A stretch of DNA of 64,000 bases from Melastoma dodecandrum (Eukaryota > Streptophyta > Magnoliopsida > Myrtales > Melastomataceae), in the NCBI GenBank assembly GCA_029817715.1, contig JARUPY010000455.1, forward strand, positions 191,001 to 255,000, written 5' to 3'. Position numbers and translations under genes: made by a program. Below the pieces are notes generated by a model. It did not search any database. It saw only the letters and a program-made list of their open reading frames with translations, and had not been told where the DNA came from. Below, one piece after another: positions 32,311-40,870 of the stretch. Each line of letters opens with the position of its first letter. Within the stretch, counting starts at the first letter, position 1.

Positions 32311-32549
32311 CGTACCGTTAGCCGCTTTCGGGGGGAGTGCTGTGACGTGGCTCTGGCACGAAGAATATTTGGGCACTTGGGGGTTGTTTTGGGAGTCTAG
32401 TTCCTTTCTACAGCTAGTGGAGAAAAGATTTTGGAGTTTACGGTGGGAGTTTGAGAAATTCCCCATTTACGGTGGCCCTATTTTTGTCTTTTTCCAAAAA
32501 AGCAATTTAGCCCAAAAGGTTTGACAGATTCGTCAATTAAGTCCTTGAA

Positions 32550-35500
32550 ATGGCTGGAGAAGGAAAATCTTCGGGAAATCCTTCTGGGACTCCATCGAGA
32601 ATGGAGTTCGTTCCAGATGCTAGATTATCTCCTTTTGGAGTTAGCAAGAGTATAAATGATATTTTAACTCAGCTAACGATTCAGGGGAGCAATGAAAGTC
32701 TAGAAAGCCGAAACCAGATGGCAAAGGAAGTAGGCTCCATTGTAAACTCAATGTTAGACGCTCTGGAAAGAGAAAGAGGTTTGAAAAGGCCTGAAGCCGA
32801 GGCGACCTCTGGACTGGAAAGTACTACAGGAAAACCAGTCGAAAGATTGAATCTGGGAGGAAGAAATTCCAAACAGAATCAAGGCAAGAGTGTGGATGAA
32901 ATGTATAAGGAGTCAGTAGCTCCTTTCATTTTAGACTCACAAAAGCGAAGTGCAAACTTGAACTCCCAAAGTGGGGAGTTGGCAAAAGACTTAAGGAAAG
33001 CCTTAGGTCTGGCAGAAGATACGCCAGTTCATTTAGACAACAGAACGTTTAACGAATTGGTAACTGCGAAGAGGGAAATTTACAGGCCCGATTATCCTCA
33101 TCGGACTAAACAAGAGTTTGTCCCAAGGGATAATGTTTTAAAGCCAATAATAACCCCTGGTGCTTTTCTGGACATTGATTGTGAAAAGCACGTATCTGAA
33201 AAGATAGATGAGTGGTTATCACTTATTCGGATGACGGCATCGGTAGGAGGAGTACCTCCTGGAGCAGTCTACGAATTATGTGTAGCAGCCCTCATGGGTA
33301 CGGCGCAAAAATATTGGAAAACCTTAGTGGCGCACACAGACATTAAGGAAAAGATAGATCAAGCGCTGACGGTTGACGGAGTATTAGCAATAATCGCTGA
33401 TGCTCTAAAACGAGAGTTCTGTGGTTTCTCATTGTCCACTGAAACTGTGGAAAAAGAGCAGTCCTTGACCGCTCTGGTTAAACTACAGATCTGTGATATG
33501 TGCTATTTTGATAACTACGTGTGTGAATTCCAGAAGTATTATTACAATCTGGATGTAGTATCTCAACAGTTCATATTAGGAACATTTTTTGCAAAACTTC
33601 CAGAGCCTTTGCCGGAAGTTGGGCAGAAGGCCTATGAATTACTTCTGAGTGAGGAAAAGATTGTCTCTGGACTCGGAGGTAAAATTCAGGCGGTAAAGTA
33701 CGCGATGCGTAAAGCATGTACTGAGCTCCAGGTAAAAGAGGCAGCTAAGAAGCTACCTTACCTAAACAAGAGCTGTTGCTCTCAGATAGAGTATGTGCCT
33801 GGAAGGTATGGATGCGATACTCGCAATACCCCAGGAGACTCTTTGAAGAGAAGGAACTTTCCTCATAAGAGGAAATTTGTTGGGTACAACAAAAAGAAAG
33901 TTTGGCCCAAGAAGGACTTCCAGCGAAAGCAAAGGGGAGGTCCTGCTTACAAACCAAGAAGGTTTGTAAGGAGAAGGGATAACCTAAAGGATAAAGATAG
34001 GATCGATGCTTTCAAGAGAAAGCATGGCAGAGAGCCTAAATGTCCTAAAGGGAAACCTTTGAGCAGTTGTAATTGCTGCTGGTTTTGTGGTTCAAAAGAC
34101 CACAAAGCGGATAGTTGTCCAAAGAAGAACCAAAGGAGAGAAAGACTCCGTATGGTCTTCCTGGATGACAGGAGTCGTGAGGAAGAAGTCCTTGCTTACG
34201 AGCCAATCGATGAGCAAGAGATTTCCGACTTAGACTCGGAAGTAGAATCGATTTATGAGATTGTGTCTGATTATGATACAGACTCAGAAGATGATTCTGA
34301 TCTCTGGACCAAACATCTGTTCATGATGCGAGCAGAAAGAGAAGGAGATGGTGATGAGTTGGTTCCTTTGGAGACAACGAATCAGGTACTGGAGGAAACC
34401 CACCAGTACGAAGATCCATCCCAGTCAATCCTGGAATGGAGGTTGCCAAATGTCAATGCGAGAGAAATTTATGAAGTATCGAGATTTAGGTTTCGATCCA
34501 CCATAGATATATCGCAGACCGAGGCGACGGCACAAGTCACGAGCACCGAGCTTGAGACTTTGGATATCCCACTCTTGAATGTACAACGCATAAGAGATAC
34601 CATGCGTAACGCGAGAGGTGTATATAATTATATACACATTGGGTTGATCCAGATAGGATTAGTCCCGCTGTTTCATTTACCAGCGGATAGTCCTGTGGTA
34701 GCAGCAGAGATCGATAAACATTGGCGAGAGTTTAGAGATCAGCTGATATCAGGAGTACAGGCTAACCTAGCACATGGTCCTGTATGGTTCCAAGTCCATC
34801 CAAACTTTATGATGGCTTTGAACGATCGCTGTTTGGGGACTTCATTGACCTTAAGAATCAAGTCGATGAATATGGATCGTATGAATCCCCAGGCCAAGTA
34901 TTTGGCGTATCACACTAGGGTAATTTACCGATTGGTAAATACCACCAGTCCTGGTGTGAGGAACATCTCTAGACTTACAGAGTTGTTCGAGGAAGGTCAT
35001 AACAACTACCAACAGTTCCATAGGCGTGAGGTGAATCCATTAGAATTAACCTGGCCAAGGAGTTGGGTTATGACTGAACCTGGTAGTAGCTCTAGGCCCA
35101 TTAGTGCGGCGAACATCCGACAGTGGGGTAATGAAATTAATCTTATGTTAGGAGATCCGTCAAGGGTTAATGAAAGAGCTGATAGGCATTTGCCTATGCT
35201 TAGCGAAAGGGCTGACAGACATTTGCCTGTGAGGATGCCAATCCTGAGAGAACCGTTCAATAGAACGCCCTCTGAAGTCTCTTCAAGAGCTAGTGATGTG
35301 GGAGAAGACGTAATAGTCTCTCGACCAGAGGTTGCAAGCGCACCTCCACTAATAGAAGAGATGTCTCGAAGGTCTGTTGATTCGAGAGCCCCGTCACAAC
35401 ATACGGGTAGAATCGTAGGGTATAGACAAGTATCATTACCAGTCTATGAAGACCCTGTGGATCAACCGAGAGAGGAATCCATAAGGATGTTAAGAGTTAC

Positions 35501-36278
35501 CAATATGGAAAACTCTTTATCTGAGATTCCTGAAGTTTGTAAGGTTATTGAGCAAATAGCCGAACAAAGGTCTATACCAATAGACGATATCTGGAGGATG
35601 ATAGAACCATCCCAGAAGGTACCTGAGAATATTGGGTTTAGTGTTAGGAAGGAAGACATGAGCACATATGTGGCTCTAACTTTCAAATTTCCTGGATACT
35701 ATGAGTATTCGCTGGATACTTTGATAGACACTGGGTGTAGCATAACTTGTGCTAGACTCAATGCTCTGCCAGATGAGTGGTGGGAACCACTGCAAAAACC
35801 CATCCATATGGTTAACGTCGATGGTATGGCCACAATTGTTGGCCATAAGGCCAGCAACGTGCCTGTCTTTATTGGTGGACAAAAGTTCATCATTAAAGAG
35901 ATTCTTGCACATCCTTTACTAGAGGCCGACATCATTATTGGTAATGCCTTTTTGAAGGGACAGAAGGAAAACCTTCCTTTTGTGCAGAATGAAACAGATG
36001 TTTCCATCGGTGGGGTAAAAATAAGTATTCTACAAGAGCCTAGACTTCGGTTAAAATTTGGCTTTTATCCGGTAAAACGGACAGAATACTGTGGAGATAT
36101 CCCATGTGAAAGAGCTTTCAGAGTGCGAGCTCAACGTGGTGATATACGGTTGGATGAGAACGAGTCATGGGTACAAACCCTGTTTTCTCCAACGAGTACC
36201 AGTAATTGTAGCTGGTATGACGACCTGTTTAAAAATCCAAAACAGGAAGTGTGTATGGCTGTAAAGTCCACATTCTAG
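32550..36278 (+). CDS. Pararetroviral polyprotein part 1: capsid, movement protein, protease
   Basis: Open frame of 1,242 codons. Residues about 130-480 have the capsid-like helical region and a very basic stretch (PHKRKFVGYNKKKVWPKK). A C-x2-C-x4-H-x4-C zinc knuckle lies at C510, C513, H518 and C523, followed by an acidic region. About 640-860 is a 30K-superfamily movement protein (ARGVYNYIHIGLIQIGL, GPVWFQVHPNFMMALNDR). Then comes a linker, then a retropepsin domain with IDTGCS (D1060-T-G) and ADIIIGNAFLKG. The order capsid then movement protein differs from the movement-first order of most caulimovirids. The frame ends at a TAG (36276-36278) just before RT, where a small indel appears to have shifted it. 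Length and openness suggest recent integration. Confidence 0.88.
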   Translation: MAGEGKSSGNPSGTPSRMEFVPDARLSPFGVSKSINDILTQLTIQGSNESLESRNQMAKEVGSIVNSMLDALERERGLKRPEAEATSGLESTTGKPVERLNLGGRNSKQNQGKSVDEMYKESVAPFILDSQKRSANLNSQSGELAKDLRKALGLAEDTPVHLDNRTFNELVTAKREIYRPDYPHRTKQEFVPRDNVLKPIITPGAFLDIDCEKHVSEKIDEWLSLIRMTASVGGVPPGAVYELCVAALMGTAQKYWKTLVAHTDIKEKIDQALTVDGVLAIIADALKREFCGFSLSTETVEKEQSLTALVKLQICDMCYFDNYVCEFQKYYYNLDVVSQQFILGTFFAKLPEPLPEVGQKAYELLLSEEKIVSGLGGKIQAVKYAMRKACTELQVKEAAKKLPYLNKSCCSQIEYVPGRYGCDTRNTPGDSLKRRNFPHKRKFVGYNKKKVWPKKDFQRKQRGGPAYKPRRFVRRRDNLKDKDRIDAFKRKHGREPKCPKGKPLSSCNCCWFCGSKDHKADSCPKKNQRRERLRMVFLDDRSREEEVLAYEPIDEQEISDLDSEVESIYEIVSDYDTDSEDDSDLWTKHLFMMRAEREGDGDELVPLETTNQVLEETHQYEDPSQSILEWRLPNVNAREIYEVSRFRFRSTIDISQTEATAQVTSTELETLDIPLLNVQRIRDTMRNARGVYNYIHIGLIQIGLVPLFHLPADSPVVAAEIDKHWREFRDQLISGVQANLAHGPVWFQVHPNFMMALNDRCLGTSLTLRIKSMNMDRMNPQAKYLAYHTRVIYRLVNTTSPGVRNISRLTELFEEGHNNYQQFHRREVNPLELTWPRSWVMTEPGSSSRPISAANIRQWGNEINLMLGDPSRVNERADRHLPMLSERADRHLPVRMPILREPFNRTPSEVSSRASDVGEDVIVSRPEVASAPPLIEEMSRRSVDSRAPSQHTGRIVGYRQVSLPVYEDPVDQPREESIRMLRVTNMENSLSEIPEVCKVIEQIAEQRSIPIDDIWRMIEPSQKVPENIGFSVRKEDMSTYVALTFKFPGYYEYSLDTLIDTGCSITCARLNALPDEWWEPLQKPIHMVNVDGMATIVGHKASNVPVFIGGQKFIIKEILAHPLLEADIIIGNAFLKGQKENLPFVQNETDVSIGGVKISILQEPRLRLKFGFYPVKRTEYCGDIPCERAFRVRAQRGDIRLDENESWVQTLFSPTSTSNCSWYDDLFKNPKQEVCMAVKSTF

Positions 36279-36288
36279 TCCTGCCTTT

Positions 36289-40653: not shown

Positions 40654-40676
40654 GTTCGATTTCTGTATATTTTTAT

Positions 40677-40689
40677 TGGTATCAGAGCC
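40677..40689 (+). other. Met-tRNA primer-binding site of the pararetrovirus
   Basis: TGGTATCAGAGCC, the 13-base match to initiator Met-tRNA used by caulimovirids to prime minus-strand DNA, in the same orientation as the viral ORFs. It conventionally marks position 1 of these genomes. Confidence 0.9.
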
Positions 40690-40870
40690 CGCTTAAGATT
40701 TATTTTCGTATAATTGTCTTGAAGGACTAAGTTGGAAGAAAAGAGAAAGTTTTTGGGTAAAATTGAGAGAAAAAGAGAGTGAATAGTGAAACAACCGTAA
40801 ATCCGTAATTTTGAAACTAGCAACCGTAAAACTCGTTGTTTTGGTAGATTCAGCCGCAAATATTAAATTC

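What the first reader, a model, noticed from the sequence alone, without database searches (positions are those of the whole stretch)
32340..40870. Near-intact endogenous pararetrovirus with capsid-before-movement-protein order in one long polyprotein
Seen: a 1,242-codon frame with zinc knuckle (C510-C523), then a 30K-type movement domain, then the D1060-T-G protease, followed by RT (YIDD) and RNase H in the next frame. Known: most caulimovirids put the movement protein first; a capsid-then-movement order is, as I recall, found in cavemo-/solendovirus-type first ORFs, but there without a fused protease-RT. Inference: this combination may represent an undescribed lineage, and the open frames imply recent integration.
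Basis: partly seen in the sequence, partly recalled or inferred. Interest (0 to 1): 0.88.

Follow-up and report, generated by a model that had tools for sequence, protein, structure and literature searches.

The report
Plant virus with jumping-gene ends
A virus related to cauliflower mosaic virus lies in at least 98 places in one plant genome, and nearly all copies whose two ends were read end in inverted repeats flanked by a copied 9- or 10-base piece of the target, so a host jumping-gene enzyme likely inserts it, which would answer how viruses without an integration enzyme enter chromosomes.

Summary
The finding is real, but its most important feature was missed. Window 32393-40834 is one copy of an endogenous caulimovirid family (coat, movement, protease, RT, RNase H, a 778-codon third gene, tRNA-Met primer site). 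The order is capsid-movement-protease-RT-RNase H. In 40 of 98 copies the frame around RT has at least 1,728 codons, enough for all five; the window copy is split by a ~227-bp deletion. Near-full-length RT relatives outside Melastoma reach 53% identity.

The copies do not have random breakpoints. All 40 sampled copies (39 sites) end in ~90-bp imperfect inverted repeats. Two end classes exist: GAG..CTC with 10-bp target duplications (22 copies, all at least 8/10 identical) and GGS..GCC with 9-bp duplications (18 copies, 14 exact, 3 at 7/9 or less). The window copy has a perfect 10-bp duplication. One insertion has an uninterrupted empty site, 220/220 identical. Coding regions are under purifying selection, and both end classes occur on near-identical RTs.

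Best reading: a pararetrovirus inserted by host Mutator-type transposases, likely from circular viral DNA. The transposase, the circle and the host's name are inferred. Listings of seven paper searches showed no such report.

The parts
32383..32392 (.). left target-site duplication GTTGTTTTGG
   Evidence: identical to 40835-40844
32393..32549 (+). left terminal region, class A; begins GAGTCTAG; left arm of the terminal inverted repeat (about the first 90 bp)
   Evidence: 38 of 40 other scored matches to this end begin within 10 bases of it; 90-bp arm comparison in other copies
32550..36278 (+). ORF1 of this copy: capsid, movement protein, protease (1,242 codons)
33450..33737 (+). caulimovirus coat protein conserved domain PF22909
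   Evidence: E 3.1e-8
34077..34118 (+). CCHC zinc knuckle of the capsid
   Evidence: read from the translation
34464..34940 (+). 30K-type movement protein domain PF01107 (reaches the end of the piece searched)
   Evidence: E 1.7e-15
35661..35999 (+). caulimovirus aspartic protease PF02160
   Evidence: E 7.9e-12
36262..36267 (+). junction of a ~227-bp deletion in this copy; removes the start of RT and puts RT out of frame with ORF1
   Evidence: all 7 compared copies have the extra segment
36265..37545 (+). reverse transcriptase (RVT_1 36316-36789) and RNase H (37060-37374) frame
   Evidence: best solved relative 8r0s
37418..39754 (+). ORF3, 778 codons, two CCHC knuckles at its start, rest of unknown fold; a homolog in Melastoma candidum
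   Evidence: part under purifying selection
39857..39864 (+). TATA-like motif, candidate promoter of the pregenomic RNA
   Evidence: sequence reading only; untested
40207..40653 (+). open frame of 148 codons in the presumed leader; coiled-coil-like by eye, perhaps a virion-associated-protein analogue
   Evidence: function inferred
40677..40688 (+). tRNA-Met primer-binding site TGGTATCAGAGC
   Evidence: exact in 39 of 40 copies
40689..40834 (+). right terminal region with the right arm of the inverted repeat; this copy stops at an inner ..AAAACTC, 40 bases short of the usual right end
   Evidence: 36 of 39 other scored matches depart exactly here; extended right ends of other copies; inner inverted repeat 32437-32473/40794-40830
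40835..40844 (.). right target-site duplication GTTGTTTTGG

Best explanation
This is a family of endogenous caulimovirids whose copies end in terminal inverted repeats flanked by 9- or 10-bp target-site duplications, and which likely inserts from circular viral DNA through host Mutator-type (MULE) transposases. Shown: fixed ends, inverted repeats, duplications, an uninterrupted empty site, purifying selection on the coding regions, and both end classes on near-identical RT genes. Inferred: in the circular viral DNA the two arms meet head to head in the non-coding stretch between the primer-binding site and the ORF1 start, and a transposase supplied in trans cuts there and joins the ends to a staggered target, with a 10-bp stagger for class A and 9-bp for class B. 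The duplication lengths and G-initial repeats would fit Mutator-type enzymes, whose PF10551 domain occurs in at least 150 places in this genome. Because the candidate promoter and primer site lie at the right end while the genes start at the left, a linear copy would not be a complete template for pregenomic RNA, so multiplication presumably passes through circles. Recombination in that phase would reshuffle ends and bodies. The class-to-enzyme assignment is inferred and no transposase has been identified.
For: Fixed ends: 36 of the 39 other scored matches leave the window's right end at one base, 3 within 4 bases; 38 of 40 start within 10 bases of the left end. Target duplications: class A 22 of 22 copies at least 8/10 identical, 15 exact, mispaired flanks 2.86/10 on average; class B 14 of 18 exact at 9/9, the others 8, 7, 6 and 3, mispaired 4.01/9. 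Window copy 10/10 although it uses an inner end. Inverted repeats in all 39 copies aligned: 59-66 identical positions in 90-99 columns, z 4.7-11.4. Empty site 220/220 identical, in an NLR gene. 95 of 98 RT copies carry an end of these classes. dN/dS 0.075 for RT (37 copies), 0.164 for part of ORF3 (8 copies), 0.152 for the ORF1 start in 15 copies not chosen by protein score plus the window. End classes are not monophyletic on the RT tree (AU p 0.009); class A and B copies share RTs up to 99.5% identical. MULE domain in at least 150 places.
Against: No transposase is encoded and no host MULE with matching ends was found: in 11 MULE stretches of 3.3-5.3 kb, which need not reach the MULE's own ends, the best match had 5 substitutions in 22. 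The end patterns were found almost only on viral sequence (class B 20 of 20 extra sites; class A 11 of 12 stretches), so the origin of the repeats is open. 3 of 18 class B copies have poor duplications (7, 6, 3 of 9). No joined right-left (circle) junction was found in the assembly, which neither proves nor excludes a circle. Gene conversion between integrated copies could also give near-identical RTs with different ends. Promoter and leader are sequence readings only. RT copies were ranked by protein score, which lowers RT dN/dS; the less biased sample gives 0.152, with a stop in 3 of its 15 copies and 0.615 in its single close pair. ORF3 is open over the readable stretch in only 4 of 7 copies.
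Confidence: 0.62

Rival explanations
1. A MULE captured one provirus long ago (a Pack-MULE) and the composite has since spread only by cut-and-paste as a non-autonomous DNA transposon; the viral genes are passengers.
For: Terminal inverted repeats, duplications and a clean empty site are those of a DNA transposon; internally deleted derivatives of about 0.64 and 2.5 kb also carry 10- and 11-bp duplications.
Against: Passenger genes should drift, but dN/dS is 0.05-0.16 in the sets measured. Two end classes with different duplication lengths on near-identical RTs need more than one capture or exchange.
Confidence: 0.22
2. Ordinary endogenous pararetrovirus: random viral DNA pieces patched into chromosome breaks by end joining, later duplicated with the host genome.
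For: This is one of the two widely held hypotheses for the family (PMC10377300, section 3.1 read); class B targets are 92% A/T.
Against: Fixed ends at dozens of unrelated sites and a sharp 9- or 10-bp duplication; only one pair shares flanks among the 39 copies and the window compared.
Confidence: 0.02
3. Retrotransposon-like insertion: an LTR-retrotransposon integrase, or a hidden integrase in ORF3, inserts linear cDNA.
For: The body is reverse-transcribing; [quoted passage not shown]
Against: No long direct repeat joins the two ends among the 20 largest of 29 repeat families, no integrase or transposase domain in the six frames scanned, and inverted rather than direct terminal repeats. Duplications of 9-10 bp are longer than LTR integrases usually make (recalled).
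Confidence: 0.07
4. The inverted repeat is the folded leader of the viral RNA, and a nuclease that cuts the matching DNA cruciform opens the circle there, followed by repair-type insertion.
For: In a circle the arms would form one long inverted repeat between primer site and ORF1, where caulimovirid leaders fold (recalled).
Against: A cruciform nuclease does not explain a fixed target stagger of exactly 9 or 10 bp, nor two staggers tied to two end classes.
Confidence: 0.05

Closest known systems
Wendovirus (endogenous caulimovirid group, PMC9794742, sections read)
   Same: order capsid zinc finger, movement protein, protease, RT, RNase H, then an ORF of unknown function; plant genomes
   Different: wendoviruses use four ORFs and two proteases and the sections read report no inverted-repeat ends; here one polyprotein, one protease found, and TIR plus duplication
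Petuvirus and wollendovirus-type single-polyprotein caulimovirids (PMC13308828, sections read; petuvirus order recalled)
   Same: movement, capsid, protease, RT and RNase H in one ORF, second ORF of unknown function in WolV1, tRNA-Met primer site
   Different: movement protein first; no transposon-like ends in the sections read
Cavemovirus and solendovirus (four ORFs, PMC7660458 read whole; capsid-movement ORF recalled)
   Same: capsid before movement protein
   Different: polymerase in a separate ORF (recalled)
Mutator-like elements and Pack-MULEs of plants (PMC10741241, PMC4334395, passages read)
   Same: long terminal inverted repeats, TSDs of 7-12 bp (generally 9-11), non-autonomous copies depend on a transposase in trans
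   Different: cargo is a nearly complete viral gene set under purifying selection; no matching autonomous MULE found
Teratorn, a piggyBac-herpesvirus fusion of medaka (PMC10175614, passages read)
   Same: a virus that carries DNA-transposon ends and sits in many genomic copies
   Different: Teratorn encodes its own transposase and is a herpesvirus; this is a reverse-transcribing virus without a transposase gene

Membership tests
Caulimoviridae | RT and RNase H closest to caulimovirids | tested here: met
   8r0s 380 bits against Ty3 198 bits; named caulimovirus RTs among the homologs
Caulimoviridae | coat domain, 30K movement protein, A3 protease | tested here: met
   PF22909, PF01107, PF02160 above cut-off
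Caulimoviridae | tRNA-Met primer-binding site; no LTR; no integrase | tested here: met
   site exact in 39 of 40 copies
Caulimoviridae | genome of 7.1-9.8 kb | tested here: met
   window copy 8.44 kb; most paired ends of other copies lie 8.6-8.7 kb apart (coordinates)
Caulimoviridae | circular episomal dsDNA | not testable with these tools
   no joined end-to-end junction found in the assembly
Any named caulimovirid genus | RT above the 62% similarity threshold of PMC13308828 | tested here: inconclusive
   best 53% identity over 397 columns among 102 aligned relatives, 58% over half in a fragment; many genera were not in the set
Wendovirus | four ORFs with two protease domains | tested here: not met
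   one protease region found; one frame of at least 1,728 codons around RT in 40 of 98 copies
Cavemovirus/Solendovirus | polymerase in its own ORF (recalled) | tested here: not met
Mutator-like element | terminal inverted repeats | tested here: met
   39 of 39 copies aligned, 1 more by eye
Mutator-like element | target duplication of 9-11 bp | tested here: met
   10 bp class A, 9 bp class B
Mutator-like element | encodes, or shares its ends with, a MULE transposase | tested here: inconclusive
   none encoded; 11 partial MULE stretches without matching ends, of at least 150 MULE places
LTR retrotransposon (Metaviridae) | direct long terminal repeats and integrase | tested here: not met
Teratorn-like virus-transposon fusion | virus encodes its own transposase | tested here: not met
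   no transposase domain in the six frames scanned

The most novel reading that the evidence does not exclude
A plant pararetrovirus has adopted DNA-transposon ends as its own integration signal, borrows at least two different host transposases (10-bp and 9-bp stagger), can swap the end cassette between strains, and so has a regular proviral stage, which the family is said to lack. The preference of other endogenous caulimovirids for A/T and (TA)n sites could then be a trace of the same route, since Mutator-like elements that target TA microsatellites exist (PMC4486113, search listing only).
Probability: 0.4. Interest if true: 0.95.

Novelty: new variant of a known kind. Interest (0 to 1): 0.85.

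Why it matters
How caulimovirid DNA enters and multiplies in chromosomes is called 'speculative' in a 2023 review (PMC10377300, section 3.1 read) and 'unknown' in another (PMC10175614, passages read). Here is a family of at least 98 copies with precise ends, duplications, an empty site and many intact reading frames. That makes transposase-borne integration directly testable with non-viral reporters, gives exact boundaries for annotation, and asks whether pararetroviruses more widely use transposon machinery.

Tried and rejected
Chance or random breakpoints: rejected by the mispaired-flank control. Host duplication of one insertion: only one pair of copies shares flanks. LTR element: no long direct terminal repeats found. 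A host MULE family as source of class B ends: 20 of 20 extra sites, out of 53 not tied to listed RT copies, were viral. Matching MULE ends: nothing convincing in 11 partial stretches. Circle or tandem junctions: none by exact pattern. A second empty site was sought and not found. Structure predictions of the movement domain and of part of ORF3 had pLDDT 33 and 34 and were not used; no fold search was run. ORF1 residues 250-1130 had no homolog at E 1e-3; ORF3 had one, in Melastoma candidum. IMG/VR scan: none. Rfam on 31000-42000: none. No full named-genus RT tree could be made from the relatives available.

Rows dropped: end statistics omit one copy (s2_19), whose ends were found later by hand; the flank comparison omits it too. 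ORF1 dN/dS leaves out 5 of 20 fetched copies (1 without the start, 4 under 85% identical). The RT tree of relatives used 102 of 120 listed proteins, those with more than 300 aligned query residues; 556 proteins had matched.
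Full report
WHAT IS THERE. The window lies in an unnamed 373-Mb assembly, G000, at C131:191001-255000. At 32393-40834 is one copy of an endogenous caulimovirid. Searched piece by piece, ORF1 holds the caulimovirus coat domain, a zinc knuckle, the 30K movement protein and the A3 protease, in that order; the next frame holds RT and RNase H. RT matches a solved 'Enzymatic polyprotein' (8r0s) with 380 bits against 198 for Ty3 (7q5b). ORF3 (778 codons) starts with two zinc knuckles, has no other domain found, and has one homolog in a 5.8-billion-protein search, in Melastoma candidum (84% over 63%). 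The RT homolog of highest identity is also from Melastoma candidum (90% over 48%). The host is therefore probably a relative of Melastoma; this is inferred. A primer-binding site TGGTATCAGAGC lies at 40677-40688 and is exact in 39 of 40 copies read.

COPY NUMBER AND FRAME. A protein search of the assembly scored 98 RT copies out of 7,292 first-look candidates, the 97 others 94-97% identical to the window. In 40 of 98 the open frame around RT has at least 1,728 codons (one flagged with a TAG), against 1,242 and 426 codons in the window copy, which lacks about 227 bp at the joint. That length equals the distance from the ORF1 start to the end of the RT frame in copies whose left end was read, so capsid, movement protein, protease, RT and RNase H most likely form one polyprotein in those copies.

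FIXED ENDS. A DNA search with the window's right end scored 40 of 565 candidates: of the 39 other matches 36 stop at the same base, 40834, and 3 within 4 bases. The left end gave 40 others, of which 38 begin within 10 bases of 32393, 1 begins 18 bases further out and 1 is a short partial match. I then read both ends of 40 copies: 20 paired from those two lists and 20 from the upper part of the RT list that were not in them. Two end classes appeared. Class A begins GAG and ends CTC; class B begins GGG or GGC and ends GCC; each has a diverged subtype.

TARGET DUPLICATIONS. In class A the 10 bases before the element equal the 10 bases after it in 15 of 22 copies and agree at 8 or 9 in the other 7. 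In class B 9 of 9 bases agree in 14 of 18 copies and 8, 7, 6 and 3 in the rest. Exact agreement occurs at length 10 only for class A and almost only at length 9 for class B (1 of 18 also matches at shorter lengths). Flanks paired wrongly agree at 2.86 of 10 and 4.01 of 9 on average. One pair of class A copies shares flanks, so these are 39 sites. The window copy has a perfect 10-bp duplication although it stops at an inner ..CTC 40 bases before the usual right end. Class B targets are 92% A/T, class A targets 64%.

INVERTED REPEATS. The first 90 bp and the reverse complement of the last 90 bp share 59-66 positions in 90-99 aligned columns in all 39 copies aligned, 4.7 to 11.4 standard deviations above shuffles; in one subtype copy a shuffle scored slightly higher (37 against 36). 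The arms lie outside the ORF1 start (125-169 bp from the left end) and outside the primer site (160-200 bp to the right end). End patterns gave 56 class A left ends (reversed-pattern control 6) and at least 183 class B left ends (145 hits of one pattern plus 38 exact hits of a form three letters away; controls 0); these are pattern hits, most not read further. Of 98 RT copies, 95 carry an end of one of these classes: 73 by pattern 3.0-5.6 kb upstream on the same strand (the 55 distances printed are 3.87-4.37 kb), 7 from ends already fetched or listed (3 of them by the right end only), 15 from newly read ends, three of which are typed only by similarity to a class A subtype. Three have no ORF1 start at that place.

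EMPTY SITE. The joined flanks of one class A copy (C464:72942-81635) match C117:2800910-2801129 over 220 of 220 bases with a single copy of the target. It is the best of 40 scored matches, because the site lies in a gene family; the uninterrupted frame is an NLR gene (Rx_N, NB-ARC). The insertion is thus clean and recent, or still polymorphic between haplotypes; allele or very young paralog was not decided. A second pair tried gave no empty site.

SELECTION. In 37 RT copies there is no stop and all have the same length. dN/dS is 0.075 over 666 pairs, and 0.05-0.08 in the 26 pairs with dS under 0.05. These copies were ranked by protein score, which favours low dN. Copies chosen by end pattern and absent from the RT list are a fairer test: the first 140 codons of ORF1 give 0.152 in 15 such copies plus the window, though 3 of those 15 have a stop. 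The only pair in that set with dS under 0.06 gave 0.615, too few to read. The first part of ORF3 gives 0.164 in 8 copies; its frame is open over the readable stretch in 4 of the 7 copies other than the window. The proteins were most likely needed while the family spread.

EXCHANGE OF ENDS. Class A and class B are not monophyletic on the RT tree (7 changes; holding class A together costs 66 log units, AU p 0.009; strongly supported branches alone force 2 changes). A class A and a class B copy share RTs 99.5% identical. In such pairs the ORF1 start and the stretch before the primer site are less alike (84-97% and 86-94% in the ten closest pairs), so exchanged tracts reach into the body. Gene conversion of RT between integrated copies could contribute.

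HOW IT LIKELY WORKS. A staggered cut of fixed length and inverted ends are the marks of a DDE transposase. Mutator-type enzymes fit best: duplications of 7-12 bp (PMC10741241, passages) or generally 9-11 bp (PMC4334395, passages), long inverted repeats, and PF10551 in at least 150 places here. No such gene was found in the element. The promoter-like TATA and the primer site lie at the right end and the genes at the left (sequence reading), so a linear copy would not yield a complete pregenomic RNA; a circle would, with the two arms joined between primer site and ORF1. This is inferred: no joined junction was found in the assembly by exact pattern. No autonomous partner was found.

WHAT IS KNOWN. 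A 2023 review calls the integration mechanism speculative and lists end joining at (TA)n repeats, LTR-retrotransposon chimeras and a suggested hijack of a transposon-derived integrase (PMC10377300, section read). Seven paper searches bear on the question and two more were on Mutator elements. None of the listings shows a paper on a caulimovirid with terminal inverted repeats and target duplications. I saw all hits, but 30 of 49, 15 of 4,405 and 10 of 86, judged by titles and abstract starts; subscription papers are mostly not held. The nearest idea in another virus group is Teratorn (PMC10175614, passages).

VERDICT. Observation partly confirmed; lineage probably new at genus level but not proven; domain order known from wendoviruses in split form. 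The transposon-type ends are the finding that deserves follow-up.

Noticed in passing
31230-32290: A long foldback of TTACTAAAA-type repeats (likely a MITE) ends about 100 bp left of the element.
   Followed up: no
42884-45109 (+): An open frame with the Orn/Arg decarboxylase PLP domain lies about 2 kb downstream of the element; COBRA-like and kinesin fragments lie elsewhere in the window.
   Followed up: partly
L143 (C599:1021360-1023360) and L070 (C604:2749483-2753017): Internally deleted derivatives of about 0.64 and 2.5 kb keep both ends and carry 10- and 11-bp duplications.
   Followed up: partly
L068 (C587:5927716-5931715): A ~49-bp class A right end is followed by non-viral sequence; perhaps a truncated copy or another element with the same end.
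   Followed up: partly
L180 (C265:8604266-8605016): A class B right end directly abuts a class A-subtype left arm: apparently one copy nested in the end of another.
   Followed up: partly
L161 (C602:1181321-1182021): The class B left end occurs twice, about 175 bp apart, with viral ORF1 after the second.
   Followed up: no
C464:72942-81635 against C117:2800910-2801129: A class A copy interrupts an NLR resistance-type gene in its Rx_N part, while the matching site on the other contig is uninterrupted.
   Followed up: yes
8469-9200 (-): Fragment with a retroviral-type aspartyl protease match (PF08284), probably an old LTR retrotransposon.
   Followed up: no
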